Origin: a bacterium SCSIO 12643
GTDB lineage: Bacteria > Bacteroidota > Bacteroidia > Flavobacteriales_G > Salibacteraceae
Assembly (NCBI GenBank): GCA_024398135.1
Contig: CP073750.1
Location: 3,958,471 to 4,022,470 of the forward strand
Reading direction: 5' to 3'
DNA: 64,000 nucleotides
A program made the translations under genes and the position numbers. Shown in pieces: positions 6,807 through 51,697 of the stretch. Positions within the stretch are counted from its first letter, which is position 1. Every line of letters starts with the position of its first letter. The notes under the pieces were generated by a model, which did no database searches, was not told where the DNA came from, and saw nothing but the letters and a program-made list of their open reading frames with translations.

Positions 6807-8102
6807 TTAAATTATCTGAGTTATACCTAATCTGCTAGAATAGCTACTATATTCCACTTGCATTTCAGATAATAATTCTTTGTTGAAAATCTTAATGTTG
6901 TTGAACTTCTCAACGAAAATTTTCTCAGGTACTGAGAATACATATCTAAAGTCAAAAACTAATGCAATATCATTGTCCGTATTGTCAAAGTGTAGATGAT
7001 CAAAAAACTTTGTAGAATCTGGAAGTGTGCCATTAAAATCGATATTTCCTTTTTTCTTGCCACTTGAAATTCTAAATGGATTTTTAATCAATACGCCACT
7101 TATTAATTTAATGTTTTTTCCAAATTTCCCTTGAGCAATATCACATGGTCTTGTTAATACCAAAGTAATATCTTTTATGTTTACTCCTTCACTTAATTGT
7201 TTTTCGAAACGTTTAGCCAATTTTGTATCGTCAGTGATGGAATATATGTTTCTAAATAGTGAATGATTGTTTTCACAAATTAGCCCTGGTAATATTGAAT
7301 TTTCAGGAATGCTTTCTTGTAATTTAAAGTGAAACCAACTATTTAGTTCTTTGTCCATTTCAGCTGAGTTGAAAGAGCCCAATGAATATAGTTGCTCTTT
7401 ATTTAATTGATCAATATTTTCAATTGGAATAGAATTCCTAGTATTGGATATTAATACTTGATCAAGAGCATCAAATAAAGTTCTTCTTTTGTATTCACTA
7501 TCTTCATTATCTAGTAGTGATGTACCACCATGTCCAACTATTATTTTTTGCAGTTTAGCATTAAAAAGAGAAGGGTCACTATTTTTTGACAGGTTACCTA
7601 TCACAATATTACTTGCTCCTTTGATGCTCTTTTTCCAAATGCCGATTTCTGCTAAGGAAGGAATGTTTTCTACTTCTTTGTCAATTTCAGAGAATAACTT
7701 TGAGTAATCATATTTTGTATTATCATCTATTGGAAAATCAGTTTTGTTTTTCACAATAAATGTAAAAGGTAGACGATTTACTTTACTCAACTCTTTAATT
7801 ACATCATCTGCATGAGCTGGGTCTTTTGACCAAATAATCAAGATGTAAAATAACTTTTCAGGGATAAGTGATTGTACCCAGTTTGCACATAGTTCTGCAT
7901 CAAACTTGGTTTCGGAAAAGAATAAGTCAAGAAAGATTAAGTTAACATCAGAATATGGATTATCAGGCATTGTATCTCCTTCATAGAGGTCAGCATTGAA
8001 AAATTTGCAGCCAACACCTTGTTCCCTGTATTGGTCAAGGATTCCTTGAATCTCGTCTTGTTTATCGTCAATTACGACTATGTTTGGTTCAAATGAAAGC
8101 AT
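6807..8102 (-). CDS. Receiver-domain protein with an unassigned C-terminal domain (island partner of the double-ATPase kinase)
   Basis: 431 residues. Residues 1-125 fold-match a two-component receiver: acidic pair D12-D13 in IVVIDDKQ, candidate phosphoacceptor D59 at the end of strand three (LIFLDLFF), and a conserved Lys in the FIVKNK strand. The remaining 300 residues are not a DNA-binding output domain I recognise; they include RPCDIAQGK and RNIYSI. The gene starts one base after the stop of the double-ATPase gene, so the two are co-transcribed. The inference is that it receives phosphate or a conformational signal from that ATPase and acts as the island's effector or control protein. The start is clear. 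Base composition is AT-rich like the rest of the island. Confidence 0.7.
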   Translation of the reverse strand: MLSFEPNIVVIDDKQDEIQGILDQYREQGVGCKFFNADLYEGDTMPDNPYSDVNLIFLDLFFSETKFDAELCANWVQSLIPEKLFYILIIWSKDPAHADDVIKELSKVNRLPFTFIVKNKTDFPIDDNTKYDYSKLFSEIDKEVENIPSLAEIGIWKKSIKGASNIVIGNLSKNSDPSLFNAKLQKIIVGHGGTSLLDNEDSEYKRRTLFDALDQVLISNTRNSIPIENIDQLNKEQLYSLGSFNSAEMDKELNSWFHFKLQESIPENSILPGLICENNHSLFRNIYSITDDTKLAKRFEKQLSEGVNIKDITLVLTRPCDIAQGKFGKNIKLISGVLIKNPFRISSGKKKGNIDFNGTLPDSTKFFDHLHFDNTDNDIALVFDFRYVFSVPEKIFVEKFNNIKIFNKELLSEMQVEYSSYSSRLGITQII

Positions 8103-8103
8103 C

Positions 8104-10323
8104 TTATTCCTGATTTTTATTAAATACTAATTCTACAACTGCCCCAGTATAAATCTCAGGAATACCTTTTTCTTTTAGTTCTTCCTTGTCTGTAATAATG
8201 TCAAACTTCCCATATTTCATCATAATAGTATCTATCAAATACATTCCAATCCCAATCCCATCATCTTTTCTAGAGAAAAAAGGTCTAATTAAATCGGAAA
8301 TATCATCTTTAAATCCAGGACCATTATCCGCCAATATGATATGAACGGAAGAGCCTTTCTTAAAAGCTCTTACAAAAATTTGTTTATTATTCCTATAGAC
8401 TGTGTTTAGCCAATAAATACTATTATCTATTATGTTCATGATCATGGTTATGAAGTACCTTTTGTCACATTTTATAGTACTTAAACCATCTTCAATATCA
8501 ATGGTATGTTCTATTTTTCTATTAGATAATTTTAGTTTGTAATTGGAAAAAGACCTAGTAATAGATTCTTTTAAATCTAATGGTTTATTACCTCCTTTTC
8601 TTAATACAGAAATAATCCCCTCTGTGTATTGTTTTAATTCATCAACTTGATCTGTGATTGTGGCAGTTTTAATTGGTCTTGACTTTACAGTCTCTTCCAT
8701 TCTTGGTACAAGCTTTTCTATTTCATGAAGAGCAACAGATGCTGTCATACCAACTCCTGCTGGGATTAGAAGTGTATTTTTGTCTTCTTCATATTTATCT
8801 TCAAGTTTCTTCGCTTCAGTTAATAAAAGGATCTTTCGTTCATCTTCGTTAAGAGTTACATCTTCAACAATAGCTTTGAAAGAATCAATTTTACTGTCAA
8901 ACAGGTTACTTGATTCTTTTTTGCTAAACTTGAGCCATTTAGTTCTGTCTGATGATCTAGTTGCTTTAAACTCAGTAAGTATTTTTTCTAATACAATTGT
9001 GAATAGGGATGAGGCCTCATTATTAATGAACCCTTCTCGGTTTGTTTTCTCGATTAAAGCTCCAGATGTTTCAGGGTCTAAAAATACGTATCCAATATTT
9101 TGATTGTTTGAAAACCATTCTTTGTTTTGAATACGTTTTAAATCCAAACCAAGCCAGTCTATTCCAGGTTCTCCATAATCATATACTCGCATATCACCTT
9201 TAAAAACTTTGATCCCAGAATGTTCTTTGAGAATATTTTTTAATGCATTAGAATTATCAGTGTAATCTCTCATTGAAGCAGCATCAAGATCAAAAGAGTA
9301 AAACTCGAAAATTAAATTTCCAAAAGGCAGTTCTTTTGTGTCAAATTCAATCAATAATTTTTCAATCGATTCTTTTTCAAATTCTTTTCTTTCTAAATCG
9401 ATTTGATATTTACTTCGGATATCTCCCTTTATGTTTCTATTATAGTCGGAATCATTGATAATTTTTCGACTTCCGATTTCTGAATTGTTTTTTAGCGAAA
9501 AGTCATATTCAAAATCCAAATTATAATCACTATCAATAAAAGCCGTGATTTTATATGGAGCATCATCCAATATTTTATCAGCTGTAGGAAAATCAATCAG
9601 CCATTGATTGTCAAAGTTTAGGTTAATTCTAAAGGATTCTTCATTTACTTTAGGCGATAACATTGATAAAGTTTGACCTTTTAATTGTCTTGCCATCCCT
9701 TTAGTCCAAGACTCTTTAAGTCCACTCAAATGTATGTAGGTTCCACTACTTTCTTTGAACCTAAATTCGTTTAGATCTTTTTTAACTTTCCATTGAATTG
9801 GGATATCTGAAAGATGTTTTGATTGACTAAAATCTTTCCAATTTATATAAAGTTGAATTTCATAGTCTGCAAGGGTCTGTTTTTTAATATCATTAGTGTC
9901 TTCATCTAATTCAATAATTAGAGGTCTTGTTATTAGAAGTATTTTGCTACTAAGCTTATGCACGGCAAATCGTCCAACTCCTTTTTCTCCCATTGGTACT
10001 CGACCAAAAAGCGGTGACTTAGTAATCTCTCTTAATCCAGTTTCGGAATTAACTGGTTTTCTATAATCTGACCCAGGTTCTAACCATACATCTTCAATTA
10101 TTTCATTGGTCATTCCTGTGCCATCATCTTCAATTATTATAGCGGCATCCTCCACATTCTCAATGTCTCTGAAATAAACGTTTACCTTTTTTGAATCCGC
10201 ATCATAACTATTTTTTACTAGCTCATAAATTGCCATAACAGGACTTTTTATGAGTTCCTCTCCAAGAAGCGTCAGGATATGAGCTTTTGGATTAAAATGT
10301 TTTTCTTTTAATTCTTCGCTCAT
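8104..10323 (-). CDS. Double GHKL-ATPase protein: Hsp90/MutL-like N-terminal domain fused to a histidine-kinase-like core
   Basis: 739 residues. The N-terminal domain carries a complete GHKL (Hsp90/MutL/MORC) ATP site: E34 and N38 in YELVKNSYDAD, DDGTGM at 66-71, and the glycine lid GEKGVGRFA at 112-120. Near the C-terminus is a second, histidine-kinase-type HATPase: N-box NIIDNS at 630-635, DNGPGF at 666-671 and the lid DDGIGIGMYL around 685-695. Just before it, ASVALHEIEKL places H533 where a kinase phosphoacceptor histidine would be. There are no membrane segments, so it is cytoplasmic. The start abuts the methyltransferase stop codon and the stop is one base from the receiver gene. Such a protein could sense DNA or DNA-bound complexes with its first ATPase and signal through the second; that role is inference. 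Confidence 0.8.
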   Translation of the reverse strand: MSEELKEKHFNPKAHILTLLGEELIKSPVMAIYELVKNSYDADSKKVNVYFRDIENVEDAAIIIEDDGTGMTNEIIEDVWLEPGSDYRKPVNSETGLREITKSPLFGRVPMGEKGVGRFAVHKLSSKILLITRPLIIELDEDTNDIKKQTLADYEIQLYINWKDFSQSKHLSDIPIQWKVKKDLNEFRFKESSGTYIHLSGLKESWTKGMARQLKGQTLSMLSPKVNEESFRINLNFDNQWLIDFPTADKILDDAPYKITAFIDSDYNLDFEYDFSLKNNSEIGSRKIINDSDYNRNIKGDIRSKYQIDLERKEFEKESIEKLLIEFDTKELPFGNLIFEFYSFDLDAASMRDYTDNSNALKNILKEHSGIKVFKGDMRVYDYGEPGIDWLGLDLKRIQNKEWFSNNQNIGYVFLDPETSGALIEKTNREGFINNEASSLFTIVLEKILTEFKATRSSDRTKWLKFSKKESSNLFDSKIDSFKAIVEDVTLNEDERKILLLTEAKKLEDKYEEDKNTLLIPAGVGMTASVALHEIEKLVPRMEETVKSRPIKTATITDQVDELKQYTEGIISVLRKGGNKPLDLKESITRSFSNYKLKLSNRKIEHTIDIEDGLSTIKCDKRYFITMIMNIIDNSIYWLNTVYRNNKQIFVRAFKKGSSVHIILADNGPGFKDDISDLIRPFFSRKDDGIGIGMYLIDTIMMKYGKFDIITDKEELKEKGIPEIYTGAVVELVFNKNQE

Positions 10324-11574
10324 TTATTTTAAAGTTTGTTTAATAACTTTAGCTATCTCATAAGCCATCAAAGGAGGTACAGCATTTCCTATTTGCTTAA
10401 AAGCTGGTGTTCTATTAACATTCTCCCGAACACCTTCAAAATAATAATCATCAGGAAATGATTGAAGTCTTGCAGCTTCTCGAATTGAGAGAGAACGATT
10501 TTGTTTCAAATCTGGATGAATATAATAATGACCATCTTTTGCAATATGAGCAACAATCGTTTGGGAATATGGCTTATCAGAGGCAACAACTTTAAACCTA
10601 TCAAAAAAAGAAGATCTATTTTTATGTGTTTTTAATTTCTCAGGAAGATCATTATAATCCAGTCTTTCTTTTTCAATATTCCACTTTTCCACAGCGATTC
10701 TGTAGATTTCTTTATCTTGCTCAGAATGTGGTCTTGTCTTATGTTGTGCCAAAATATCCACACCATTCCGAATACAATTTGAATTTAAATATTCATTTGT
10801 ATCAGATCTGTAATGAGTATATTTATTCTGCCCTTCACCAGCTTGGAGTTTTGGTAAATCATCTAATACATCATTAACAGAATATTTGTCATTCGCTAAA
10901 TTTATTGACTCTAAATCTGGAATTTCAAAATCATATTGTTTATCCCAACCAATGATTATAATCCTTCTCCTATTTTGTAATACGCCAAAACTGCTAGCCT
11001 TAATCGTAAAAAGCTTCATATTATATCCTTTTTTATCAAAAAGCTTTTTCATATTCTTTAAATAAATGCCTTTGTTGGCAGATTTCAGACCTATAACATT
11101 TTCAAAAACAAACATTTTTGGTTTATACTCTTCCAAGTACTTTGCATACTGAACATATAGATAATTCCTAGAGTCACCTTTCATTCCATTTTCTGATCTA
11201 GCCCTCCCTACAAGTGAATAGGCTTGACATGGTGGCCCTCCGATTATTAAGTCTACTTTTTTACGTTTTTTATTTTTATGAATCCTCTTTTGTATTTCAT
11301 CATTATATTCCTTAGAAATTGGAAGATTAATAACAGAATTTAATAATTCATCGGGAATAAGCGAATATAAATCGGCTCTAGAAATCTCACCTTTTAAGTA
11401 TTTCACATAAACATCATATAAACCTTTAGATTTCAAATAGTGATACGCAGCCCTAGTTTTCAATGTATTACAAGCAGCTAAATCCATTTCTACATGAGCA
11501 ATTGGTTCAAATCCATTCCGTATAAAACCTTCTGAAAGTCCACCAGCTCCTGAAAATAAATCAATAAAATTCAT
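10324..11574 (-). CDS. C5-cytosine DNA methyltransferase (Dcm/DNMT1 family)
   Basis: 416 residues with the ordered motifs of the family: motif I FSGAGGLSEGF (7-17) binding AdoMet, motif IV GGPPCQAYS with catalytic C116, motif VI FENV (157-160), motif VIII QNRRR (200-204), a target-recognition region about 215-345, motif IX SIREAARLQSFP (about 366-377) and motif X GNAVPP (about 397-402). The stretch between motifs I and IV is unusually long and Lys-rich. All catalytic residues are present, so it should methylate cytosine; the recognition sequence cannot be read off. It is the first gene of the three-gene unit with the double ATPase and receiver protein, and the vsr gene lies just upstream on the same strand. 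No restriction nuclease is recognisable beside it. Confidence 0.96.
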   Translation of the reverse strand: MNFIDLFSGAGGLSEGFIRNGFEPIAHVEMDLAACNTLKTRAAYHYLKSKGLYDVYVKYLKGEISRADLYSLIPDELLNSVINLPISKEYNDEIQKRIHKNKKRKKVDLIIGGPPCQAYSLVGRARSENGMKGDSRNYLYVQYAKYLEEYKPKMFVFENVIGLKSANKGIYLKNMKKLFDKKGYNMKLFTIKASSFGVLQNRRRIIIIGWDKQYDFEIPDLESINLANDKYSVNDVLDDLPKLQAGEGQNKYTHYRSDTNEYLNSNCIRNGVDILAQHKTRPHSEQDKEIYRIAVEKWNIEKERLDYNDLPEKLKTHKNRSSFFDRFKVVASDKPYSQTIVAHIAKDGHYYIHPDLKQNRSLSIREAARLQSFPDDYYFEGVRENVNRTPAFKQIGNAVPPLMAYEIAKVIKQTLK

Positions 11575-11686
11575 AGTGTGAATTTCGTAATATAGTTGAC
11601 TTATAATAACATGTTATTATAAGTATTACTAACAATTTTCTTAACATGAAATCGGGTTCGAAGGTAAATCCTTGTTTTTTTAAACC

Positions 11687-11775
11687 CCATCCGTATAAAC
11701 CCTTATTTAAATTATGTGGTAAATACGCACACAAGTCATGTAACCAACTTATTTTAAACAGAGTATATTACACAC
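11687..11775 (-). repeat. Long upstream element, copy A (before the methyltransferase gene)
   Basis: About 90 bases closely resembling the stretch at 12399-12490 upstream of vsr. Shared blocks are ATCCGTATAAACCC (11689 on), ATGTGGTAAATACG (11714-11727) and AGTATATT near the end. It lies 110-200 bases upstream of the methyltransferase start, in the same orientation relative to its gene as the other copies, which suggests an operator rather than a mobile repeat. Confidence 0.6.
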
Positions 11776-11837
11776 CAAAATCCAAGCACAAAATATCCAT
11801 TCTAATTTTGCTGCATAAAACTCATATTCAAGCATTC

Positions 11838-12269
11838 TTATTTTATCAATCTTATTTTAATTTCATTTAATTTACTTTCTCGTCTTTCTGAGTTTTTCTT
11901 TCTCGGTTCCAGCTCACATTCAGCCCAAACGACAATCACGTTCCAACCCAGTTTCTTCCATTCAGCTACTTTTATTTGATCTCGTTTTACAGCAGACTTT
12001 CTCCGAAGAGTGATTTTTTGAGAAGCTGTAGAAACCCGATCTCCATATTTACATCCATCATGTAAATGCCAAAAACAACCTCGAACATCAATAATGGTTT
12101 TGTATTTGCTTAAAACAATGTCAGGTTTCCCTGGTAATTTTTTACTGTGCAAACTATACCTAAAACCATGTGAATGAAGAAACCTTCTAACCAACATTTC
12201 CGGACGGGTGTTTTTACCCTTGATCTGGCTCATGTTGTAACTTCTCGTTTCGGTATTATGAACATCCAT
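11838..12269 (-). CDS. vsr: Very short patch repair endonuclease (Vsr family)
   Basis: 143 residues from the ATG at 12269. That start gives the family's standard opening (MDVHNTETRSYNMSQIKGKN); the open frame continues upstream to 12317 but adds nothing conserved. D50 in KPDIV matches the catalytic aspartate of E. coli Vsr, and GCFWHLH at 64-70 matches the zinc/active-site segment, although the residue before the glycine is Arg where E. coli has His. Vsr nicks T:G mismatches left by deamination of 5-methylcytosine, so it normally accompanies a C5 methyltransferase, as here. The gene lies upstream of that gene on the same strand with a 263-base gap and appears to have its own promoter region. 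Confidence 0.93.
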   Translation of the reverse strand: MDVHNTETRSYNMSQIKGKNTRPEMLVRRFLHSHGFRYSLHSKKLPGKPDIVLSKYKTIIDVRGCFWHLHDGCKYGDRVSTASQKITLRRKSAVKRDQIKVAEWKKLGWNVIVVWAECELEPRKKNSERRESKLNEIKIRLIK

Positions 12270-12398
12270 TACTGAATTATTATCTGGTGGACTAAACCAG
12301 ACCAAAGTAGATAACAATGACTAAAACAAAATGATAATTATTATGTATTTTTTAATTATTACTAGATACCCAAAATACGTTATCAAAAAATTAAAATT

Positions 12399-12490
12399 CC
12401 ATCCGTATAAACCCGTATTTTACCAATGTGGTAACTACGTATACAAAACACGTAAACACTTAATTTAAAAGGAAGTATATTTAGACCAGA
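12399..12490 (-). repeat. Long upstream element, copy B (before vsr)
   Basis: Near-duplicate of the element at 11687-11775, with ATCCGTATAAACCC at 12401-12414, ATGTGGTAACTACGTATA at 12427-12444 and AGTATATTTAGACC near the end. It lies about 130-220 bases upstream of vsr. Between it and vsr the gap (12270-12634 in total) holds only AT-rich sequence. A 23-codon frame starting near 12503 on the plus strand has no support as a gene. Confidence 0.6.
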
Positions 12491-17710: not shown

Positions 17711-18057
17711 TGAAAACCCCAGTAACCCTCTTCTAAGAAAAAATAAACGGAAAAAAGCCTTTTTGGTTAGTGATTAGATAGTGGTAATGAAAGTAGACTC
17801 ACTTCCCAAAAAGACTTTATATTTGAAACATTTGTGTTTGGAAATCTCAAGTAATAAATTCCCTATGTTCTTGCGGCTAATTTCAGCTAATCACCACAAA
17901 ATATTCAGTTAAACACCTTTACATCACCTTATCAATTCACTAAAATCACCTTTACTTTAACTATACATAAAAAACAAGCAACTAATAACCAGTTGTTTAT
18001 TTTAATTTTTAAATTATGAATACATTCTGATTTTTATGGTGCGATTTCCGCATTGCC

Positions 18058-18065
18058 TAATTTTG
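18058..18065 (+). promoter_or_regulatory. Candidate -7 promoter element of the first TPR-LuxR gene
   Basis: TAATTTTG matches TAnnTTTG and lies 22 bases before the ATG at 18087. It supports that start over the earlier in-frame ATG at 18036, which would lie upstream of the transcript. Confidence 0.4.
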
Positions 18066-18086
18066 CTCGCACACAACGATCAAATC

Positions 18087-19778
18087 ATGAATATACTTTT
18101 AAAAGCAACCTTATTCATCTACTTTCTGATTTTATCTAACCCTTCATTTTCGCAAACCTCAAAATACAACCTTGATGATGTGAATCATTTCTTAGAACTG
18201 GCCGAATCCTATAGAATATCTCAACCCGATAGTTGTTTATATTATTCGGAAAAAGCCGCTCAGATTTCATCTAAATATAAGTATCCACTCCAACTGGTTA
18301 AGTCATATCTTCTTTTAGCCAACTACCACTGGAGAAGAACCGAATATAAAGAAGCTTTACAATATGCACATGATGCACAGAAACGATCCAGAGATTTGGA
18401 TAATAAAGAACAACTTGCACATGCCAATCTACTTATTGCCAACATATACCTGGAACTTGGTGATTACGATCAAAAAATAGATTTAATATTTGATGCCCTG
18501 GAAATATTTAAACGCTCCGGAAACAAAAAAGGGATCTCGTACGCATACATCAGTATTTCAGCTGCTTATTTTAAACAAAACAACATGGATAAAGCTTTTG
18601 AATATGCGTTTAATTCTTTGGAGACCTCAAAGAAAATCAAAGATTTAAATGGTACAGCAAGAGCGCTAAACAATATTGGAGTAATGTACGGTACTCTTAA
18701 AAACTACAAACAAGAACAATCCTATTATCTCAAATCTATCGCAATTGCACAACAAATGCATGATGAACTCAGAGAAGGAGTTTTGTATTTAAATATCGGT
18801 AAAACGCTCTACAACCTGAATGCACTGGATTCTTCATACCAATACATCAAACAAGCACAACTCATTTTTGAAAACACAAAAAATGACAAATACCTCGCAG
18901 AGATTCATATCCAACTAGCATATAATTATTTAAAATCGCTCCAATATGATCTGGGTATCCAAAATGCTCAGATTGCCTTTAACCTTGGAGAAAAACATCG
19001 ACTAGTGAATACTATGGCAGATGCTGCGAAGGTTTCTCAACTACTCTATGAAGCCTCAAATGATGTCGCGCAAGCGTATCAATACGCCAAAATACACTTT
19101 AACCTTCAGGATAGTCTAAACCTCCAAAGTATCAACTCCCAGGTAGCCCAAATCGAAATGAAATATGAAGTTGAACACGCACTTTTAAAAAAAGAAGCCG
19201 AACAAAAGCATAAACAATCTTCCTACGTCATGATATTCACCATTGTGGTAGCCATAATGTGCCTGGTGGTAATCGGAATCTACTACAGCAGCAAAATAAA
19301 AATAACCCAAACCATACAGGAACGAATTGAATTAGAGTTTGAGTTAGAAACTAAACACAAAGAACTGGTATCCAACACTATGTCTTTATTAAAAACAAAC
19401 AAGACCCTCACTGAGATCACCAATAATTTAAATGAAGTGTTAAATTATGACAACCTGTACGAAACACAGCTAGCTGTCAATGCCATTGCCAACTCTGTTA
19501 AACAAGCTACCAGATCTAATGTTTGGAAAGAATTTGAAATGCGGTTTCAACAGGTACATCATAAGTTTAACGAGAACCTATTGTCCAAGTTTCCAAATTT
19601 AACTCCATCTGAACTTAGATTATGTGCACTACTCCGGCTCAACCTCACTACCAAAGAGATTTCTGAACTTACCGGTCAACGAACCTCTTCACTGGAAATT
19701 GCTCGTTCACGTTTACGTAAAAAACTGGGCATCACGGACCGAAACATCAATTTGGTGGTATTTCTTTCTGCTTTTTAG
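18087..19778 (+). CDS. TPR protein with membrane helix and C-terminal LuxR-type HTH, paralog 1
   Basis: About 563 residues from the ATG at 18087, which gives a clean signal peptide (MNILLKATLFIYFLILSNPS then FSQ). Residues about 25-360 are tetratricopeptide repeats with the ALNNIGVMY-type signature. One transmembrane helix follows (about 378-398, IFTIVVAIMCLVVIGIYY), then a coiled coil and a C-terminal LuxR-type helix-turn-helix (LTPSELRLCALLRLNLTTKE, then SSLEIARSRLRKKLGI). The layout is that of the Bacteroidetes regulators in which a periplasmic TPR sensor is wired across the membrane to a cytoplasmic DNA-binding domain. A close paralog follows directly, in the same orientation. The targets are unknown. 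Confidence 0.88.
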   Translation: MNILLKATLFIYFLILSNPSFSQTSKYNLDDVNHFLELAESYRISQPDSCLYYSEKAAQISSKYKYPLQLVKSYLLLANYHWRRTEYKEALQYAHDAQKRSRDLDNKEQLAHANLLIANIYLELGDYDQKIDLIFDALEIFKRSGNKKGISYAYISISAAYFKQNNMDKAFEYAFNSLETSKKIKDLNGTARALNNIGVMYGTLKNYKQEQSYYLKSIAIAQQMHDELREGVLYLNIGKTLYNLNALDSSYQYIKQAQLIFENTKNDKYLAEIHIQLAYNYLKSLQYDLGIQNAQIAFNLGEKHRLVNTMADAAKVSQLLYEASNDVAQAYQYAKIHFNLQDSLNLQSINSQVAQIEMKYEVEHALLKKEAEQKHKQSSYVMIFTIVVAIMCLVVIGIYYSSKIKITQTIQERIELEFELETKHKELVSNTMSLLKTNKTLTEITNNLNEVLNYDNLYETQLAVNAIANSVKQATRSNVWKEFEMRFQQVHHKFNENLLSKFPNLTPSELRLCALLRLNLTTKEISELTGQRTSSLEIARSRLRKKLGITDRNINLVVFLSAF

Positions 19779-19832
19779 ACTGGCATCAATCCCATATATT
19801 GAAAATATCTAGAAGGTTGATCCATAAACAAA

Positions 19833-19860
19833 AGAGCACCTGCAAATTTGCAGGTGCTCT
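19833..19860 (+). terminator. Perfect 28-base palindrome after TPR-LuxR paralog 1
   Basis: AGAGCACCTGCAAA meets TTTGCAGGTGCTCT with no spacer. It is a strong hairpin 55 bases past the stop codon, but lacks a T-run on the plus strand, so it is either a non-canonical terminator or a protein-binding site. The 19779-20211 gap holds this, AT-rich sequence and the promoter of the next gene. Confidence 0.6.
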
Positions 19861-20174
19861 ATCAATAAACAACACAATTTTAACAGCTTAAGTTAATTAT
19901 TTAATGAACTATATAATAAAACTTATCCATATTATTTATTGACTTTTTGATAGGGTTACGTAGATCTATTAATTACTAATATTTCACCTATGACGAAAGT
20001 GAATTAATCAAAGGAATAATCTAACCTAAACCATCTCAACATTGCCTTAACATCATTAAAAAATAACCTTACATCAACTATACAAACAAAATAAACAACT
20101 GATTAACAAAAACATACTCACAAGCCACTTCTCTAAACAAAAAACCATTTTCAAGTTTCGATATAGACATTCGC

Positions 20175-20182
20175 TAAATTTG
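20175..20182 (+). promoter_or_regulatory. Candidate -7 promoter element of the second TPR-LuxR gene
   Basis: TAAATTTG matches TAnnTTTG, 29 bases before the ATG at 20212. No clear TTTG was found at the -33 spacing. Confidence 0.4.
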
Positions 20183-20211
20183 TTTTTTAGACAATCAATA
20201 CAATCCATAAA

Positions 20212-21903
20212 ATGAATCAGGTTTTAAGAGTAATGACCATCATCTTTTTTTTGATTATATCTCATTCATCATTTACACAAAATCAAAAGGTAGACTATGA
20301 ACAGATAAACCATTTACTAGAAAGAGCGCAATCTTATAAAAGTTCTCAATCAGATAGTTGTTTAGTCTATGCAGAACAAGCAATGCTATTATCTAAAGAA
20401 AATAAATACCCTATTCTACTTATTGAATCGTATCTTCTTTTAGCTGATTATCATTGGAAAAGAAGTGAATATAAAAATGCGCTGGAATATGCGCACAAAG
20501 CCGAAGAGCTTTCCCAAGACCAAGATGATAAAAAACTATATGCCCGTTCAATTCTAATTATTGCCGACATACATATCGAAACGGGCAGCTCTAATCAGAA
20601 ATTGGACTTATTATTTGACGCACTGGATATATTCGATCAACAGAATAATTTCAAAGGTAAATCACACACTTACATCAGTATTAGTGGCGCATATTACAGA
20701 TATGGTAATATCGCTAAAGCCCTTGAATATTGCCAAAAATCACTGGATGAATCCAGAAAAATCAATGACCTTAATGGAATCTCCAGAGCCTTGAATAACC
20801 TCGGAGCTATGTATCATGAACTTAAAAACTTTGAACAGGAAAAATTATACTATCTAGAATCGTTAACCATTGCTCATGAAATGAATAACGAATTATTGGC
20901 AGGAATTATCTATTCAAATCTCAGCAAAGTATATTCTAACCTTAATGATTTAGATTCGTCATACTACTACCTAAATCAAGCAATGACTATTTTTAAAACC
21001 ATTCAAAATCATAAGCGTATTGCTCAATCTTATATTCTATTAGCCATTTACTATCAAAAATTACAACAATATGACCTTGCATTTGAAAACGCACAAATTG
21101 CATTAGAAATTAGTAAGTCCTATGATTTAGATATTACAATAGCCCACTCTGCACAGTTATTACGAGAGCTATATGAAAAAACTGGCGACATAGAAAATGC
21201 TTATAAAAATTCCCAGATTTATCACGATATTAAGGATAGCATAAATTCTCATACTATAGATTCACGTATAGAACAGATCGAAATGAAGTATGCCTTTGAG
21301 CACACGCTTTTAGAAAAAGAATCTGAGCAAAAGCATACACGTTTGATTTATATCACCGTTTTCACTATCGTGATCACATTGATGAGTTTAGCCTTGATTA
21401 TTACGTACTTTAGAAGTAAAATTAGAATAGCCCATTCAATTCAAGAAAAAATCAAACTGGAATCCGAATTGGAAATTAAACACAAAGAGTTAGCAACCAA
21501 CACTATGCATCTAATTAAAACCAATAAGACATTGAATGAAATCACCACCCATCTAATCGAAGTACTTGACTATGATAACTTACATGACACACAATCGGCT
21601 GTCAACACCGTAATCAATGGTATTAAACAAGCTTCCAGATCTAAAGTTTGGAAAGAATTCGAAATACGATTTCAACAAGTGCACAACAATTTTTATGATA
21701 ACCTATTGACCAGGTTCCCCAAACTAACGGCATTGGACCTTAGACTATGCGCACTACTTCGACTTAATTTGACCACCAAAGAAATATGTGAACTTACCGG
21801 TCAAAGAACTTCATCATTAGAAATTGCTCGTTCTCGCTTAAGAAAAAAACTGGGTATTACTGACCGAAGTATAAATTTAGTGGTATTTCTTTCTGCATTC
21901 TAA
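20212..21903 (+). CDS. TPR protein with membrane helix and C-terminal LuxR-type HTH, paralog 2
   Basis: 563 residues, collinear with the preceding gene along its whole length. It has a signal peptide ending SSFTQ, TPR repeats about 25-360, one membrane helix (about 378-398), a coiled coil and a LuxR-type HTH whose last 45 residues are almost identical to paralog 1. The sensing part has diverged much more than the DNA-binding end. That suggests the two read different signals but bind the same or overlapping sites. The two genes arose by tandem duplication that included the upstream region. Confidence 0.88.
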   Translation: MNQVLRVMTIIFFLIISHSSFTQNQKVDYEQINHLLERAQSYKSSQSDSCLVYAEQAMLLSKENKYPILLIESYLLLADYHWKRSEYKNALEYAHKAEELSQDQDDKKLYARSILIIADIHIETGSSNQKLDLLFDALDIFDQQNNFKGKSHTYISISGAYYRYGNIAKALEYCQKSLDESRKINDLNGISRALNNLGAMYHELKNFEQEKLYYLESLTIAHEMNNELLAGIIYSNLSKVYSNLNDLDSSYYYLNQAMTIFKTIQNHKRIAQSYILLAIYYQKLQQYDLAFENAQIALEISKSYDLDITIAHSAQLLRELYEKTGDIENAYKNSQIYHDIKDSINSHTIDSRIEQIEMKYAFEHTLLEKESEQKHTRLIYITVFTIVITLMSLALIITYFRSKIRIAHSIQEKIKLESELEIKHKELATNTMHLIKTNKTLNEITTHLIEVLDYDNLHDTQSAVNTVINGIKQASRSKVWKEFEIRFQQVHNNFYDNLLTRFPKLTALDLRLCALLRLNLTTKEICELTGQRTSSLEIARSRLRKKLGITDRSINLVVFLSAF

Positions 21904-43452: not shown

Positions 43453-44100
43453 TTACTCTTTCCCAAAACCATACTTTAAGCTGATCAACCATTGCCCATT
43501 TAATTCATACTGATCAAAATCAAAGTCATACCAATAGTACTGCGCTATTCTAGCTTCGGTGGAGATGGTGTATTTATCGGTTAAGTCATAGGAAACACCT
43601 ACTCCTGAAGTAATTGCATTTCCAAACCAAACGTAATTCTTAATCGTTACATCCGATGACCGCATATCATCTAAACGATCATAGTAGCTGTATTGAAGGC
43701 CTAATTTTAAAAGCATTCCAACATCCACAGACCAATGAAATTTTTTTTGACCAAAAGTCCACTTTGCCAATACAGGTGCCAAAATTGATTTTTCAATATA
43801 AGTTTTCTCTTTAGGTACCACTCGATCTGGCATATAATACTGTTTGTATATCGTATAATTTATTTTGGACTTGTTAAACATCAGTTTATAATGAATGGAA
43901 AATCGCTTCATCATATTATGCTGCATACTCACTCCTGCTGACCAGCCTAGCATATGGTCAGGTGTAACTCTTTCAAAAGAATAAGTACTAAAACGTTGGA
44001 TATCTCCTCCTCCAACAACTCCAAATTGTAATTTATGATTTTGTGCTTGTGCAAAAATCGACATCAAGACACATGTCAGTGTAATAGTAAAGTATTTCAT
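43453..44100 (-). CDS. Outer-membrane beta-barrel protein, array member 8 (last)
   Basis: 215 residues with signal peptide (ending FAQA-Q). Shared family blocks: NHKLQFGVVGGGD, SMQHNMMKRFSIHYKLMFNK, VLAKWTFGQKKFHWSVDVGM and the C-terminal LISLKYGFGK. It is separated from the previous member by 91 bases, so it may have its own promoter, and it ends at a strong terminator. Confidence 0.85.
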   Translation of the reverse strand: MKYFTITLTCVLMSIFAQAQNHKLQFGVVGGGDIQRFSTYSFERVTPDHMLGWSAGVSMQHNMMKRFSIHYKLMFNKSKINYTIYKQYYMPDRVVPKEKTYIEKSILAPVLAKWTFGQKKFHWSVDVGMLLKLGLQYSYYDRLDDMRSSDVTIKNYVWFGNAITSGVGVSYDLTDKYTISTEARIAQYYWYDFDFDQYELNGQWLISLKYGFGKE

Positions 44101-44191
44101 GGGTATTATTTATTTTAAACGCTCCAATATAGCAAACATCTCATTGTATGTCAACAGTATACAGACCTAATAATATTAATTAAAATCCCTC

Positions 44192-44761
44192 TCACTTCTT
44201 CTGCCCTAAACCATAAGTAACTCCAACAAGAATTTGTGCATTAGTGTCGTATGTATCCGGCTCAAAATAATACCAATAGTAATGCCCCAATCTTCCTTCC
44301 ATAAATATTTTAGTTTGTTCATTAATACTATAAGTACCTCCTAACCCTATAGTTAGTACATTATAATAGTCAAGCTCATCCTTATAAAACCAAATCAAGT
44401 TTTGTAATCCAACATCAGTTGTAAGTTTGAGTTTCTTTTGGCCAAAGGTCCATCTAGCCAATATGGGTATAACTATGCATTTTTTAGATTCAAAAACTAC
44501 TTCATTCCACCAGCCTGACCAATATTCCAATTTTGATTGGTTATACATAATTTTATAATTCAAAGAAAAACGCTTCTTTAAATTATGCTGAACCGAAAAA
44601 CCAGCAGACCATCCAAAACCAGTGAATCTATCCCCTTCCATTCGCGCCAAAGCATAATCCGTATCAAATCCTCCAACAACCCCAATTTCGGTTTTATAAT
44701 TTTGTCCAAAACCCAGGAATGATGCAGCAATTAACCCTATGAGAACAATAATCGATTTCAC
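44192..44761 (-). CDS. Outer-membrane beta-barrel protein, array member 7
   Basis: 189 residues, one of the shortest. Signal peptide ends GFGQ. Family blocks NYKTEIGVVGGFD, VQHNLKKRFSLNYKIMYNQ, ILARWTFGQKKLKLTTDVGL and ILVGVTYGLGQ are present; the extracellular loops are shorter than in its neighbours. The start is one base past the stop of member 6, so the two are co-translated. Confidence 0.85.
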   Translation of the reverse strand: MKSIIVLIGLIAASFLGFGQNYKTEIGVVGGFDTDYALARMEGDRFTGFGWSAGFSVQHNLKKRFSLNYKIMYNQSKLEYWSGWWNEVVFESKKCIVIPILARWTFGQKKLKLTTDVGLQNLIWFYKDELDYYNVLTIGLGGTYSINEQTKIFMEGRLGHYYWYYFEPDTYDTNAQILVGVTYGLGQKK

Positions 44762-44762
44762 T

Positions 44763-45407
44763 TTATTTCTGCTTCAAACTATAACTTACTCCAGCCAAAA
44801 CCTGTAGTTTATAATCATCCAAATGACGAATATCACTCCAGTATGCTCCTGCTAACCTACTTTCCAAGGAAACTTTTAGCTTATCTGATATAGAATAAGA
44901 ACAACCGCCTCCAATTAAAAATGCAAAATCAATCTCTCTAGAACTCAGTCCCACATATGAATGATCTTCTTCTGGTTCATGTTCTGCATAATCAACAAAC
45001 ACTTTTGATCGAAAAAAATATTCAGTTTGGATTCCAGCATCCAGCAACACCTTAAATCTTTTACCAAATGACCAACGTGCCATCACCGGAAGTATCAAAA
45101 ATTGATCATAATTCGTCATATCATAATCCCTTTCCGGAAGCGATCCACAACATCCTCCATTAACCGATCTATGTGACTTCTCTTGCTGAAATATCAGATT
45201 CGTATTTAAAGAAAAGTGCTTTTTAATATTCCGTTGAGCAGAGATTCCGGTAGTGAATCCTACTTTAAAAGGGTGTCCATCCCAGTCAACAAAAACTCTT
45301 TGATTAATTCCTCCAACAACTCCCAATTCCCATTTATAATCTTGTGCATAAGAAATCGAAAATATCATTAGGACTCCAATAAGTACAGGTATTTTTTTCA
45401 TGATCAT
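44763..45407 (-). CDS. Outer-membrane beta-barrel protein, array member 6
   Basis: 214 residues; the start may instead be the third-codon ATG at 45401. Nearly identical to member 5 in the signal peptide and first strand (PVLIGVLMIFSISYAQDYKW), so these two are the most recent duplicates, but the loops differ strongly. Contains a Cys-pair loop (GGCCGSLP). Confidence 0.85.
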   Translation of the reverse strand: MIMKKIPVLIGVLMIFSISYAQDYKWELGVVGGINQRVFVDWDGHPFKVGFTTGISAQRNIKKHFSLNTNLIFQQEKSHRSVNGGCCGSLPERDYDMTNYDQFLILPVMARWSFGKRFKVLLDAGIQTEYFFRSKVFVDYAEHEPEEDHSYVGLSSREIDFAFLIGGGCSYSISDKLKVSLESRLAGAYWSDIRHLDDYKLQVLAGVSYSLKQK

Positions 45408-45413
45408 AATATT

Positions 45414-46058
45414 TTATAAACTATATGAAAGTCCGGTTAATACTTGCCAATTCAATCTATCCGGATCATTAAATTCTCTAAAATACAAGCCAGTAAGTCT
45501 TCCTTCTAAAGACACGTTTAACCTCTTTGATATAGAATAAGTACTTCCAATTCCCGAAGAAAACGCAATATCCCATTCGTAATATTTCATTGGTTCTATC
45601 AACGGCCCATCACTTACTGAAGATAGTTCTTCGTAAGACTCTTTCTGATTAAATAAATAGGACATCTGTACTCCGGCATCTACAAATAGTTTCAACTTTT
45701 GTCCATATGACCAACGTGTCATTACCGGCATCGTTAAATATTGATTTGTTATTCTTCTTTCCAAAGAACCATAACATAGTCCTGACAATTTTCCTCCACA
45801 TGAATGGTCTATATATTGTTCAACCAAATGCCCTTGCTGATAAATGATGTTAGTATACACCGAGAAATGTTCTTTCCAATTATACTTTACGGACAAACCT
45901 ACAGTAGGTCCCAATCGAAAAGCCCAATCATTGTATGGTTTATTGGTATAATGCGTTTGATTGATTCCTCCCAAAACTCCCAATTCCCATTTATAATCTT
46001 GTGCATAAGAGATCGAAAATATCATTAGGATTCCAATAAGTGCAGGTATTTTTTTCAT
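45414..46058 (-). CDS. Outer-membrane beta-barrel protein, array member 5
   Basis: 214 residues. Signal peptide MKKIPALIGILMIFSISYAQ. Blocks YKWELGVLGGINQ, LSVKYNWKEHFSVYTNIIYQ, VMTRWSYGQKLKLFVDAGVQ and WQVLTGLSYSL. It follows member 4 after a 117-base gap, which probably holds a promoter, so members 5-7 may form their own unit. Confidence 0.85.
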   Translation of the reverse strand: MKKIPALIGILMIFSISYAQDYKWELGVLGGINQTHYTNKPYNDWAFRLGPTVGLSVKYNWKEHFSVYTNIIYQQGHLVEQYIDHSCGGKLSGLCYGSLERRITNQYLTMPVMTRWSYGQKLKLFVDAGVQMSYLFNQKESYEELSSVSDGPLIEPMKYYEWDIAFSSGIGSTYSISKRLNVSLEGRLTGLYFREFNDPDRLNWQVLTGLSYSL

Positions 46059-46175
46059 GGCTAAAAAATAAAGTTTTACTGGGCTAATATAATGGGCAAA
46101 ACAACTGTTACCAAATAAAATTTCGAATCATTTCAAAAAACGTACTTTCCTTATATTTTACTTGGGTTTCAAGTT

Positions 46176-46763
46176 TTACTTTGATCCTATTCCATAAGAC
46201 AAACCTATTAATCCCTGATAACTATAGCCGTTTTGTTTATCAAACTCTCCAATTCGAAATTCAGTTCCCACCGCCATTCTATCGGTAAAATCATAAGAAA
46301 TTCCAAGTCCACTGGTCAATCCAAGGTTAAGGTTATCAGATACTTTTTCAAATGGCATTTGTAACTGCATCCCTATATCCACCATCCAATGCAGTTTTTG
46401 CTGACCAAAAGTCCATTTGGCCAATACCGGAACTACCATAAATTGATCAGTGATCGTTCTTTTCTCCAATAAATCGGTATTGGCATATATAATATCACCC
46501 ATGGTTTCCGGGTATATGGTTTCGGTTTTTATATCCTCCCGATACATGAATCTATAATGAAGCGAAAAACGTTTCATAAAATTATGTTGTATGCTGATAC
46601 CGCTCGACCATCCATATTCATAATGATAATTACTTAGTGCGTCTTCCTGAGGTTGAAAATAAGAATCCACACCTCCAATGGCTCCTATCTGGAGTTTATG
46701 ACTTTGCGCCCCAACGCTTGAAAAGGCTGCAATAACGAATATATATAAGACTATCTTTTTCAT
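46176..46763 (-). CDS. Outer-membrane beta-barrel protein, array member 4
   Basis: About 195 residues from the ATG at 46763 (MKKIVLYIFVIAAFSSVGAQ). An earlier ATG at 46784 would overlap member 3. Family blocks SHKLQIGAIGGVDSYF, IQHNFMKRFSLHYRFMYRED, VLAKWTFGQQKLHWMVDIGM and GLIGLSYGIG. Confidence 0.85.
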   Translation of the reverse strand: MKKIVLYIFVIAAFSSVGAQSHKLQIGAIGGVDSYFQPQEDALSNYHYEYGWSSGISIQHNFMKRFSLHYRFMYREDIKTETIYPETMGDIIYANTDLLEKRTITDQFMVVPVLAKWTFGQQKLHWMVDIGMQLQMPFEKVSDNLNLGLTSGLGISYDFTDRMAVGTEFRIGEFDKQNGYSYQGLIGLSYGIGSK

Positions 46764-46773
46764 CACGTCATTT

Positions 46774-47376
46774 TTACAATCCATAACTTACCCCTAAAAA
46801 CAACTGTCCATTGACCCCATCTTCAAATAAGGGGCCTTCATCCAGACTATTGAAGTCCATGACTCTTAGTTCAGTATTTACAGCTATTTTTTCCGAAATA
46901 TCGTATGACACACCTAGTCCACTGGAAATACCCAAAAGCACATCATTCCGCTTCCTTAAATAACTAAACCCTTTATCATTGGTCCATTTTGCATGATTGA
47001 TCAGTTGGGTTTGTATACCAACATCTAACATCCAATGCCATTTTCCCTGTCCAAATGTCCACTTGGCCAATACAGGAATCACAATAGACTTTTCTAAAAT
47101 CTCCCCTCTACCAATGTCGAACACCCCCCACCAGGAAGTGAAGTCTTGCTTAATCCGTTCCTCACGATATAGTACTCTATAGTTTAGCGAAAAATGTTTT
47201 TTGAGGTTGTGTTGTATCGAAACCCCAGTTGACCAGGCATATTGAGATTCGTTGTATGATGGTCTCGAAAAATATGAATCCATACCACCTAACACACCTA
47301 GTTGGATTTTGTGACTTTGTGCCTCAGCACCTGCAAATGCTACAATAGCGCATATAAGTAATACAGTTTTTTTCAT
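46774..47376 (-). CDS. Outer-membrane beta-barrel protein, array member 3
   Basis: About 200 residues from the ATG at 47376 (or 47379), with signal peptide ending AEAQ. Blocks SHKIQLGVLGGMDSYF, IQHNLKKHFSLNYRVLYREE and VLAKWTFGQGKWHWMLDVGI. The gap to member 2 is about ten bases, so they share one message. Confidence 0.85.
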   Translation of the reverse strand: MKKTVLLICAIVAFAGAEAQSHKIQLGVLGGMDSYFSRPSYNESQYAWSTGVSIQHNLKKHFSLNYRVLYREERIKQDFTSWWGVFDIGRGEILEKSIVIPVLAKWTFGQGKWHWMLDVGIQTQLINHAKWTNDKGFSYLRKRNDVLLGISSGLGVSYDISEKIAVNTELRVMDFNSLDEGPLFEDGVNGQLFLGVSYGL

Positions 47377-47386
47377 CATTCCATTT

Positions 47387-48028
47387 TTATAATCCATAAC
47401 TTACGCCCAACATCAACTGACCATTCAAATCATGTTTGTAAAATTTCAGATCGCTAATAAGATCAAAATCTACTGCTCTAAATTCTCCGGTTACTGATAT
47501 TCTATCTGTAACATCATACGACATACCTACTCCACTGGAAACACCTAAATACAGCTCACGCCAATTACTGAAACCACTATAAGAATAACCTACAAATGGC
47601 TCATGTTGCCATACGTATTCAAAATTCAGCTGTGCCTGAATTCCAATATCTACCATCCAGTGTAATTTTTTCTGCCCGAAAGTCCATTTGGCCAATACGG
47701 GAACAATCATCGATTTACTGGTAGACGTTCCTTTACCTATATAATCTTCATGACTCAACCCCGTACCACAGAATGGATATAGATTAAATTTCATTTTCTC
47801 TTCGCGATACAACACTCTGTAGTGAAGCGAAAACCGCTGCATTATATTATGCTGTAAGGAAATTCCGGTAGACCAACCATATTCATAGTCCGGGCCATAA
47901 GGTTCATGTTTTAATGCTTCAAAATAGGAATCGACTCCACCAAGTACGCCTATTTGCAATTTATGTTCTTGCGCCTGTGTACTCGTAAAGGCTAAAAAAA
48001 CTAAAATAAGTATGGATAATTTTTTCAT
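47387..48028 (-). CDS. Outer-membrane beta-barrel protein, array member 2
   Basis: 213 residues, signal peptide MKKLSILILVFLAFTSTQAQ. Blocks EHKLQIGVLGGVDSYF, LQHNIMQRFSLHYRVLYREE, VLAKWTFGQKKLHWMVDIGI and LMLGVSYGL. Members 2, 3 and 4 share the VDSYF/MDSYF segment and form a sub-group. Confidence 0.85.
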   Translation of the reverse strand: MKKLSILILVFLAFTSTQAQEHKLQIGVLGGVDSYFEALKHEPYGPDYEYGWSTGISLQHNIMQRFSLHYRVLYREEKMKFNLYPFCGTGLSHEDYIGKGTSTSKSMIVPVLAKWTFGQKKLHWMVDIGIQAQLNFEYVWQHEPFVGYSYSGFSNWRELYLGVSSGVGMSYDVTDRISVTGEFRAVDFDLISDLKFYKHDLNGQLMLGVSYGL

Positions 48029-48038
48029 GGTTTAGTTT

Positions 48039-48629
48039 TTAAAGTCCGTAAGTTATTCCAAAAAACAATTGAGAGTTTTCACTATATACATTACCAGTTA
48101 GGTTGCTTTCATGAATCACCAACCTGGCTTCCATAGTTCCGGATAATCTATCCGTAAATGCGTATTTAGCTCCTGTACCAAAAACAAGCGCACCTTTATG
48201 CCAATGCGCTGGGTTATTCAACACTTCGACAACTCCCCCAACAAACTCAGAATCTAAAATTTCCCTATATCCTCTGGTATATTGCAATCCTGCATCCAGC
48301 AAAACCTTTAATTTACTCTGACCAATCATGTATCTGGCAGTGAAAGGAATGGCAAACGATTTCATGGTCATTTTAAAATTACCACTACTATTCTCCGTTT
48401 TTACGATCATTTCGTGATATAGAAATTTGGTATTTAAAGCAAACCGCTCTGTCCAGTTAAACTGCGCATTTAATCCGGCCGACCATCCCAATGGATAATG
48501 ATCAAAGGCTTCATTTTCAACCCAGGAGATATCGCCACCTCCGGTAAGTCCTAATTCAAATTTATGATCTTGTGCTTTAGCTGCTATAGAGATCAATGCC
48601 GCAGCAAATAGTATAGAAAGGTATTTCAT
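48039..48629 (-). CDS. Outer-membrane beta-barrel protein, array member 1 (first transcribed)
   Basis: 196 residues, signal peptide ending AKAQ. Blocks DHKFELGLTGGGDISW, AQFNWTERFALNTKFLYHE, FTARYMIGQSKLKVLLDAGL and LFFGITYGL. The most divergent of the array. It lies ten bases before member 2 and is divergent from the AraC regulator gene at 48779, which could regulate the array. Confidence 0.85.
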   Translation of the reverse strand: MKYLSILFAAALISIAAKAQDHKFELGLTGGGDISWVENEAFDHYPLGWSAGLNAQFNWTERFALNTKFLYHEMIVKTENSSGNFKMTMKSFAIPFTARYMIGQSKLKVLLDAGLQYTRGYREILDSEFVGGVVEVLNNPAHWHKGALVFGTGAKYAFTDRLSGTMEARLVIHESNLTGNVYSENSQLFFGITYGL

Positions 48630-50622: not shown

Positions 50623-51669
50623 TCATACCTGCCTATCCTTCTCTTTAATAATCTCTTCAACTTTGCTTACAAATAGCTCTTGACTCTTTAAATCTTCTGT
50701 TTGAGGTATTATAACACTTTCTTCAAAGTTTACTACCTTTTTGAAATTTTCATCGTTATCCATAATTCTATCTATATTCACCGATGTTTCAAAATGATGC
50801 TCATAACTCTGATAATAATAGGGTCTAATAGTTTTTACATTAGGTTCATTAAATATTTGATTTAAGATCAATTTATCTGACAATCCACAGGAATGACCAA
50901 TTATCGAAACTTCTATATCTCCCTTCTCCAAAAAGTCTTTTAGTCTATTTTCTTCATTAGTTCTCTTATAGTTATGCTTCTTTATATTTCTTAAGTACTC
51001 CTTATTTCCCAAGCCTAACAACTCCCTAGAATCCTCATTATTAGCTGCATAACCAAATATTATTGGATTTCTATTACTATCTATCTCTCCATGAATTTGA
51101 ACTAACTGTATTCGATCTGCATTTTTCACATATTTTAAATACTGTTTAATTGAATCGGTATAATTGAAGTTTAATATCATCAAATCACCCTGCTGGACCA
51201 TGCTATTAAAAAATTCCTTGAATACTGAAATAGGCTTAAATTTCCTCTGTTCTTGTTTAAGGAATTCTGAAAGATATTTTTTAACAATTTCAAAATCTTC
51301 ATTTAGTTTTTCAGGGTTCTCATACAAAGGATCAATTCTCTTTGATAACTCACCGACAATTAATAATTCTAAAAAATACTGAGTCTCAATATCACACCAG
51401 TTATTAGTAATCAATTCATTGGTAATTTTTCTAAAAAAATAATTGTCAGTTCCAAACGGTTCATCTAAACTTCTGGAATATTTCTTCCAATCATCAAAAC
51501 TCTTATAAACTCTATTAGAATCACTAATTACAAGTAAATCAGGGAACTTTTCTTTATTCTTTAATTCTTCATTAAATAGATAGTTAATAAAATGCCAATA
51601 ACTTGTTTTTAGCCCATGAGCTAAATCAAATCCATTTCCAATTATTATGAGGTTGTTCATTTTTTTCAA
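50623..51669 (-). CDS. AbiH family abortive-infection protein
   Basis: 348 residues opening with NLIIIGNGFDLAHGLKTSYW, the N-terminal signature of the AbiH family; further motifs are FLELLIVGE in the middle and VQIHGEID and SIIGHSCGLSDK in the second half. Lactococcal AbiH blocks phage by abortive infection; the mechanism is not established. The gene lies 28 bases downstream of the AAA/TOPRIM-like gene on the same strand and is AT-rich like it, so the pair looks like a laterally acquired unit. The start could also be the ATG three codons in. Confidence 0.88.
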   Translation of the reverse strand: MKKMNNLIIIGNGFDLAHGLKTSYWHFINYLFNEELKNKEKFPDLLVISDSNRVYKSFDDWKKYSRSLDEPFGTDNYFFRKITNELITNNWCDIETQYFLELLIVGELSKRIDPLYENPEKLNEDFEIVKKYLSEFLKQEQRKFKPISVFKEFFNSMVQQGDLMILNFNYTDSIKQYLKYVKNADRIQLVQIHGEIDSNRNPIIFGYAANNEDSRELLGLGNKEYLRNIKKHNYKRTNEENRLKDFLEKGDIEVSIIGHSCGLSDKLILNQIFNEPNVKTIRPYYYQSYEHHFETSVNIDRIMDNDENFKKVVNFEESVIIPQTEDLKSQELFVSKVEEIIKEKDRQV

Positions 51670-51697
51670 TTAATACTTAGCAACATTCGCTTTTAAA

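What the first reader, a model, noticed from the sequence alone, without database searches (positions are those of the whole stretch)
6807..12269. Methyltransferase / double-ATPase kinase / receiver / Vsr island without a visible restriction nuclease
Seen: four same-strand genes; the last three touch or nearly touch. Catalytic motifs are intact in the C5 methyltransferase, in Vsr and in both ATP sites of the second-unit ATPase, and the receiver pocket is intact. The block is AT-rich compared with both flanks. Known: GHKL ATPases of the MutL/MORC kind occur in restriction-modification contexts, and Vsr accompanies C5 methyltransferases. Inference: the methylation state of DNA could be read by the Hsp90/MutL-like domain and passed by phosphotransfer to the receiver protein, which would then be an effector or regulator. 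This would be a two-component defence or epigenetic system.
Basis: partly seen in the sequence, partly recalled or inferred. Interest (0 to 1): 0.8.

Follow-up and report, generated by a model that had tools for sequence, protein, structure and literature searches.

The report
Two-component guard of methylated DNA
Four neighbouring bacterial genes encode a DNA methyltransferase, its repair helper, a histidine kinase with two ATP-binding domains and a receiver protein, and related loci suggest that the kinase likely reads the DNA site the methyltransferase marks and would switch on an effector against foreign DNA.

Summary
The four genes are real and intact; the island is AT-rich and absent from 99 related genomes. 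Of 62 related kinase loci, 57 hold a C5 methyltransferase in the fetched DNA, 44 directly upstream. The phospho-histidine is kept in 63 of 63 kinases, the receiver Asp in 52 of 52 window-like receivers. A predicted two-component pair beside C5 methyltransferases and Vsr is published (PMC8011034); this is a divergent class its Pfam models miss. New here: 13 sister kinases carry an EcoRII-N DNA-reading domain, and 12 of the 13 sit with Dcm-like methyltransferases, against 0 of 41 other loci typed; the tree needs five changes of each trait, too few independent pairs for significance. Every one of 19 short receivers is followed by a ComEC-like metallo-beta-lactamase-fold gene; none of the other 43 loci has it. 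Inferred: the kinase reads the methyltransferase's site and fires an effector by phosphotransfer. Nothing biochemical was tested; the window's DNA reader and effector remain unidentified.

The parts
11838..12269 (-). Vsr (very short patch repair) endonuclease, 143 aa
   Evidence: Pfam Vsr E 4.5e-28; E. coli Vsr structure 1cw0 E 4.4e-20
10324..11574 (-). C5 cytosine DNA methyltransferase, 416 aa; the only C5 methyltransferase locus found in the genome
   Evidence: Pfam DNA_methylase E 7.3e-62; PADLOC DrmMII 571.6 bits; own-genome search
8104..10323 (-). Histidine kinase with two GHKL ATPase domains, 739 aa, phospho-acceptor H533 predicted
   Evidence: Pfam HATPase_c_3 and HATPase_c; invariant motifs in 34 aligned homologues and across loci
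8944..10293 (-). MORC/Hsp90/MutL-like ATPase half of the kinase (residues 11-460)
8107..8757 (-). DHp plus catalytic half of the kinase (residues 523-739) with H533
6807..8102 (-). Receiver protein, 431 aa, predicted acceptor D59
   Evidence: AlphaFold model and receiver match; D12, D59, K120 in 52 of 52 window-like receivers
6810..7319 (-). C-terminal output domain of the receiver protein (residues 262-431), no known fold, C320 D321 K326 G336 Q415 R424 G426 invariant
   Evidence: Invariant in 22 of 22 aligned; no significant PDB or Pfam match

Best explanation
The island encodes a Vsr repair nuclease, a C5 methyltransferase, a double-ATPase histidine kinase and a receiver protein that likely work as one restriction-like defence, in which DNA lacking the methyltransferase's mark would start phosphotransfer from the kinase to the receiver. 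Shown: intact genes and motifs, tight gene order, conservation of the pair beside C5 methyltransferases, and in sister loci co-occurrence of an EcoRII-N reader with Dcm-like methyltransferases and of short receivers with an MBL-fold gene. Inferred: (1) the methyltransferase marks the host's own sites and Vsr repairs the T:G mismatches that 5-methylcytosine gives; (2) the MORC/Hsp90/MutL-like half of the kinase closes on DNA with ATP, the site being read in sister kinases by the fused EcoRII-N domain and here by an unidentified surface or partner; (3) unmethylated sites favour closure, H533 is phosphorylated and the phosphate passes to D59; (4) the phosphorylated receiver activates an output, in short-receiver loci the separate ComEC-like nuclease, here probably the fused C-terminal domain.
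For: C5 methyltransferase in the fetched DNA of 57 of 62 kinase loci, directly upstream in 44; receiver directly downstream in 51. H533 63/63; D12, D59, K120 52/52. Fold of both kinase halves and of the receiver. Thirteen kinases with EcoRII-N (alignment to EcoRII-N structures, E 7.1e-8, for the one tested); 12 of the 13 with Dcm-like methyltransferases against 0 of 41 others typed; five changes of each trait on the tree. Three EcoRII-N loci (L005, L006, L049) have methyltransferase, kinase, receiver and MBL but no EcoRII-C enzyme in the fetched DNA. MBL gene in 19/19 short-receiver loci, 0/43 others, related to ComEC nucleases (E 1.2e-14) and, for the one protein tested, to defence MBLs. Patchy distribution, low GC.
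Against: No biochemistry or phage data. The window's kinase has no recognised DNA-reading domain, and neither its methyltransferase's site nor its effector is known. Kinase-receiver-MBL loci without an adjacent methyltransferase exist (L017, L018, L019, L022). Eight of 13 EcoRII-N loci also hold an intact EcoRII-C enzyme, so there the relay could serve that enzyme. No EcoRII-C or MBL of this kind was found in the own genome (both without a positive control).
Confidence: 0.5

Rival explanations
1. A regulatory two-component system that controls expression of the methyltransferase or other genes; the receiver's C-terminal domain would bind DNA or a transcription factor and no DNA is destroyed.
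For: Receiver proteins commonly end in output domains that regulate transcription (established knowledge). The 2021 paper speculates on signalling that controls R-M systems (PMC8011034, discussion). Most window-type loci show no separate nuclease next to the receiver.
Against: The C-terminal domain matches no DNA-binding family in Pfam or the PDB by sequence. In 19 short-receiver loci the partner gene is a ComEC-like MBL, not a regulator.
Confidence: 0.2
2. A repair or chromosome-maintenance module: the MutL-like half of the kinase works with Vsr on T:G mismatches made by 5-methylcytosine deamination, and the receiver only signals damage.
Against: 28 of 62 loci show no Vsr in the fetched DNA. 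An EcoRII-N reader and a ComEC-like nuclease partner fit defence better than repair. Vsr is the one gene of the four that is spaced away (263 bp).
Confidence: 0.12
3. An ordinary solitary methyltransferase with Vsr, as Dcm/Vsr in E. coli, that merely neighbours an independent mobile two-component pair.
For: Dcm and Vsr stand together without a restriction enzyme in E. coli K-12. Four Hymenobacter loci have the pair without an adjacent methyltransferase.
Against: Methyltransferase directly upstream of the kinase in 44 of 62 loci and abutting it here; methyltransferase type changes with the kinase's reader domain.
Confidence: 0.13

Closest known systems
HEF_HK (PF19191) / Response_reg_2 (PF19192) two-component-like pair beside R-M systems (PMC8011034; abstract, introduction, results and discussion read)
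   Same: GHKL + DHp + GHKL kinase next to a receiver protein, beside C5 methyltransferases and often Vsr; soluble; the kinases are homologous (my kinase profile scores the published class at 110-132 bits).
   Different: Neither Pfam model hits the window's pair, and the receivers do not join significantly by profile (E 0.11). EcoRII-N readers, Dcm-type co-change and MBL partners are not in that paper's main text.
paraMORC/MORC ATPases of restriction-modification operons (Iyer et al. 2008, PMC2292703, passages)
   Same: GHKL+S5-like ATPase in an operon with a C5 methyltransferase and Vsr.
   Different: Those are described with helicases and endonucleases; the island has neither and adds a true kinase half and a receiver.
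EcoRII restriction-modification (PMC4081073, passages)
   Same: EcoRII-N is an allosteric site-binding domain; sister kinases carry its homologue beside Dcm-like methyltransferases.
   Different: There it activates the EcoRII-C nuclease in one protein; in sister loci it is fused to a kinase, and the window's kinase lacks it.
MBL nucleases of Hachiman, AVAST, Lamassu and DRT defence (PMC12799240, passages)
   Same: The MBL partner of short receivers is hit by PADLOC models for MBLs of that kind (one protein).
   Different: Those are activated by a fused protease; here a phosphorylated receiver would do it (inferred). The window itself has no MBL gene.
Detocs (recalled, no paper read)
   Same: A two-component relay used in phage defence.
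   Different: Recalled as having no methyltransferase and no MORC-like half; not compared here.

Membership tests
HEF_HK / Response_reg_2 pair | Kinase hits Pfam HEF_HK (PF19191) | tested here: not met
   No hit at E<=1 for the window's kinase; 3 of 3 kinases of the published class hit (L052, L057, L061)
HEF_HK / Response_reg_2 pair | Receiver hits Pfam Response_reg_2 (PF19192) | tested here: not met
   No hit at E<=1; profile comparison with the published class E 0.11; 7 of 7 published-class receivers scanned one by one hit
HEF_HK / Response_reg_2 pair | HATPase_c_3 + DHp + HATPase_c kinase adjacent to a receiver, beside a C5 methyltransferase | tested here: met
Two-component system | Conserved phospho-His in a DHp domain and conserved acceptor Asp in a receiver | tested here: met
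   H533 63 of 63; D59 52 of 52
Two-component system | Phosphotransfer from kinase to receiver | not testable with these tools
   Needs biochemistry
Type II restriction-modification | Methyltransferase plus a cognate site-cutting endonuclease | tested here: not met
   Methyltransferase present; no endonuclease gene other than Vsr in the island
DISARM | drmA, drmB and drmC beside the methyltransferase (recalled) | tested here: not met
   Only the DrmMII-type methyltransferase; no Drm hit among eight flanking proteins nor in the other three island proteins

The most novel reading that the evidence does not exclude
A two-component system whose input is the methylation state of DNA: a MORC-like clamp kinase reads the very site its own methyltransferase marks, and unmarked foreign DNA fires a phosphorelay that unleashes a swappable effector (a ComEC-type nuclease in sister loci, a new output domain here): restriction by phosphotransfer instead of by a site-cutting enzyme.
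Probability: 0.37. Interest if true: 0.87.

Novelty: new variant of a known kind. Interest (0 to 1): 0.62.

Why it matters
If the chain holds, bacteria have coupled self/non-self reading of DNA to His-Asp phosphotransfer, with reader (EcoRII-N or another) and effector (MBL nuclease or fused domain) exchangeable around a constant kinase-receiver core. It would give the published HEF_HK/Response_reg_2 pair a concrete input and output, and offer a bacterial parallel for MORC ATPases, which in eukaryotes are linked to DNA methylation. Every step can be tested with simple assays in laboratory strains.

Tried and rejected
Rejected: membership in DISARM. Led nowhere: PDB and Pfam searches with the receiver's C-terminal domain (best PDB hits AcrE1 at E 0.8; weak Pfam hits only); a protein search with that domain alone, whose 120 listed of 204 proteins bear no other Pfam domain; site counts in 64 kb, too short to bear on specificity; promoter scan, 30 found against 28.7 expected. 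Carriage: the receiver has no match in the plasmid collection; the kinase has two short unannotated records of the phage collection at 28-32% identity; in viral contigs 36 stretches matched a pattern, none encodes a relative. VIA-align covered residues 2-152 of the receiver protein; its C-terminal part was not folded alone, so a known fold is not excluded. The tree is a quick one of 51 rows; L050 and the published class were left out. In it every methyltransferase not Dcm-like was given one state, although L038 has only fragments and L001 and L042 are just 30% identical to the window's. Four of 66 loci (L053, L055, L063, L065) had no kinase ORF above my profile threshold and were dropped from the tallies. 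Three loci (L018, L019, L038) have only methyltransferase fragments under 300 aa and were not typed against Dcm; hence 41, not 44. Literature: no text on an EcoRII-N kinase or an MBL partner of this pair showed in the listings, nor in PMC8011034 by term search; papers outside the held library were not searched. PMC13092281 (passages) lists HATPase and REC in a legend on predicted, unvalidated systems; I cannot tell whether it is this pair.
Full report
Observation. Methyltransferase, kinase and receiver genes touch (0 and 1 bp); Vsr ends 263 bp before the methyltransferase. GC is 31.4% in the island against 40.8% and 40.9% in the flanks. The genome is one contig of 4.12 Mb with one C5 methyltransferase locus, this one. 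Of 100 genomes searched with the kinase profile (own included, from same genus to same class), only the own one has it. In a genome of the same genus the right-hand flanking gene is present, but in the 10 kb fetched there it is the only stretch that matches the window, so neither island nor left flank lies beside it.

Neighbourhoods. A scan of one genome per species gave 66 loci; 62 held a kinase ORF by my profile and four were dropped. Of 62, 57 have a C5 methyltransferase-like ORF in the fetched DNA, 44 directly upstream of the kinase; a receiver of three window-like classes lies directly downstream in 51, and the other 11 have there a receiver of the published class by alignment, 7 of 7 scanned one by one hitting Response_reg_2. 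In L018 and L019 the methyltransferase is only a fragment about 9.6 kb away. Of the five without any, three have under 2.5 kb of upstream DNA. Vsr ORFs are in the fetched DNA of 34 of 62. In the phylum, 10 of 395 genomes have the kinase at E<=1e-60, own included.

Output modules. Profile comparison joins the window's receivers with those of class C (A5) over full length (E 6e-29) and with the short receivers over residues 1-216 (E 5e-84; four window-type rows were in that second alignment, which inflates it). Long receivers of these classes share a C-terminal domain with C320, D321, K326, G336, Q415, R424 and G426 invariant in 22 of 22 aligned, without known relatives by sequence. The 19 short receivers lack it; each is followed within about 110 bp, overlaps included, by a gene for a metallo-beta-lactamase (MBL) fold protein, which none of the other 43 loci has. 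Lactamase_B was hit by 13 of 20 proteins scanned, one of the 20 being no MBL. The profile's best solved relatives are ComEC competence proteins (E 1.2e-14); VGQGDS, HxHxDH and HHG motifs are in 19 of 19; the one protein tested hits PADLOC models of DRT, Lamassu and Avs1. MBLs of that group are DNases that a protease activates in Hachiman and AVAST (PMC12799240, passages). That a phosphorylated receiver takes the protease's place is my inference.

Sensor modules. Thirteen kinases carry an added N-terminal EcoRII-N domain (Pfam E 9e-17 for L009). That of L009 aligns with EcoRII N-terminal structures (E 7.1e-8), and three motif patterns are kept in 13 of 13. In EcoRII this domain binds extra CCWGG sites as an allosteric activator (PMC4081073, passages). 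Twelve of the 13 loci have a Dcm-like methyltransferase (42-52% identity to E. coli Dcm, a CCWGG enzyme by recalled knowledge); of the other loci, 41 had a methyltransferase over 300 aa to compare and none is Dcm-like. On the kinase-core tree each trait needs five changes, at least four being forced by well-supported branches for EcoRII-N. In three well-supported independent pairs the methyltransferase type goes the same way in 2.9 on average and never the other way, but three pairs cannot reach significance (p 0.25). The exception, L029, pairs EcoRII-N with a window-type methyltransferase (66% identity) and is the one row with N for H in the TG.HQ.G motif: either its site has shifted, or window-type enzymes use a related site. 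For the latter there is weak support: the window's enzyme best matches a DISARM DrmMII model, and a review states that DISARM methylates CCWGG (PMC5957327, one passage). Eight of the 13 loci also hold an intact EcoRII-C enzyme and L007 has pieces; L005, L006, L029 and L049 have none in the fetched DNA.

Interpretation. The pair is best read as a two-component relay whose input is DNA at the methyltransferase's site and whose output is exchangeable. Shown: architecture, conserved chemistry, linkage, association of reader with methyltransferase type, exclusive pairing of short receivers with the MBL gene. Inferred: methylation sensing, phosphotransfer, activation of an effector, and defence as the purpose. 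For the window itself reader and effector are unidentified; confidence 0.5.

Known or new. PMC8011034 (2021) predicted a two-component pair beside C5 methyltransferases and Vsr and speculated on control of R-M systems. [quoted passage not shown] The EcoRII-N fusion with its Dcm-type association and the MBL partner were not seen in the searches made. I rate it a new variant of a known kind.

Noticed in passing
11679-11769 and 12391-12481: A 91-nt intergenic direct repeat (76% identical) flanks the Vsr gene; the own genome holds six matches to it in all, four of them in the window. Nature unknown.
   Followed up: partly
50623-53503: Second AT-rich patch (27-30% GC) with a 601 aa AAA_21 ATPase (best PADLOC hit ATPase-Toprim_I-B) and a 348 aa AbiH-like protein (E 1.4e-9): perhaps another defence module.
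   Followed up: partly
43453-48629: Tandem array of eight paralogous genes of 189-215 aa; the four scanned are outer-membrane beta-barrel proteins.
   Followed up: partly
18036-21903: Two neighbouring TPR-repeat proteins, 56% identical to each other (TPR hits in the one scanned by Pfam).
   Followed up: no
[not shown]
   Followed up: partly
L017, L018, L019, L022: Hymenobacter kinase-receiver-MBL loci without an adjacent methyltransferase; L017-L019 have a 192-195 aa gene upstream (weak MtlR hit in the one scanned).
   Followed up: no
L007 13785-14562: Two short pieces related to the EcoRII-C enzyme beside an EcoRII-N kinase locus: probably a decayed restriction gene.
   Followed up: no
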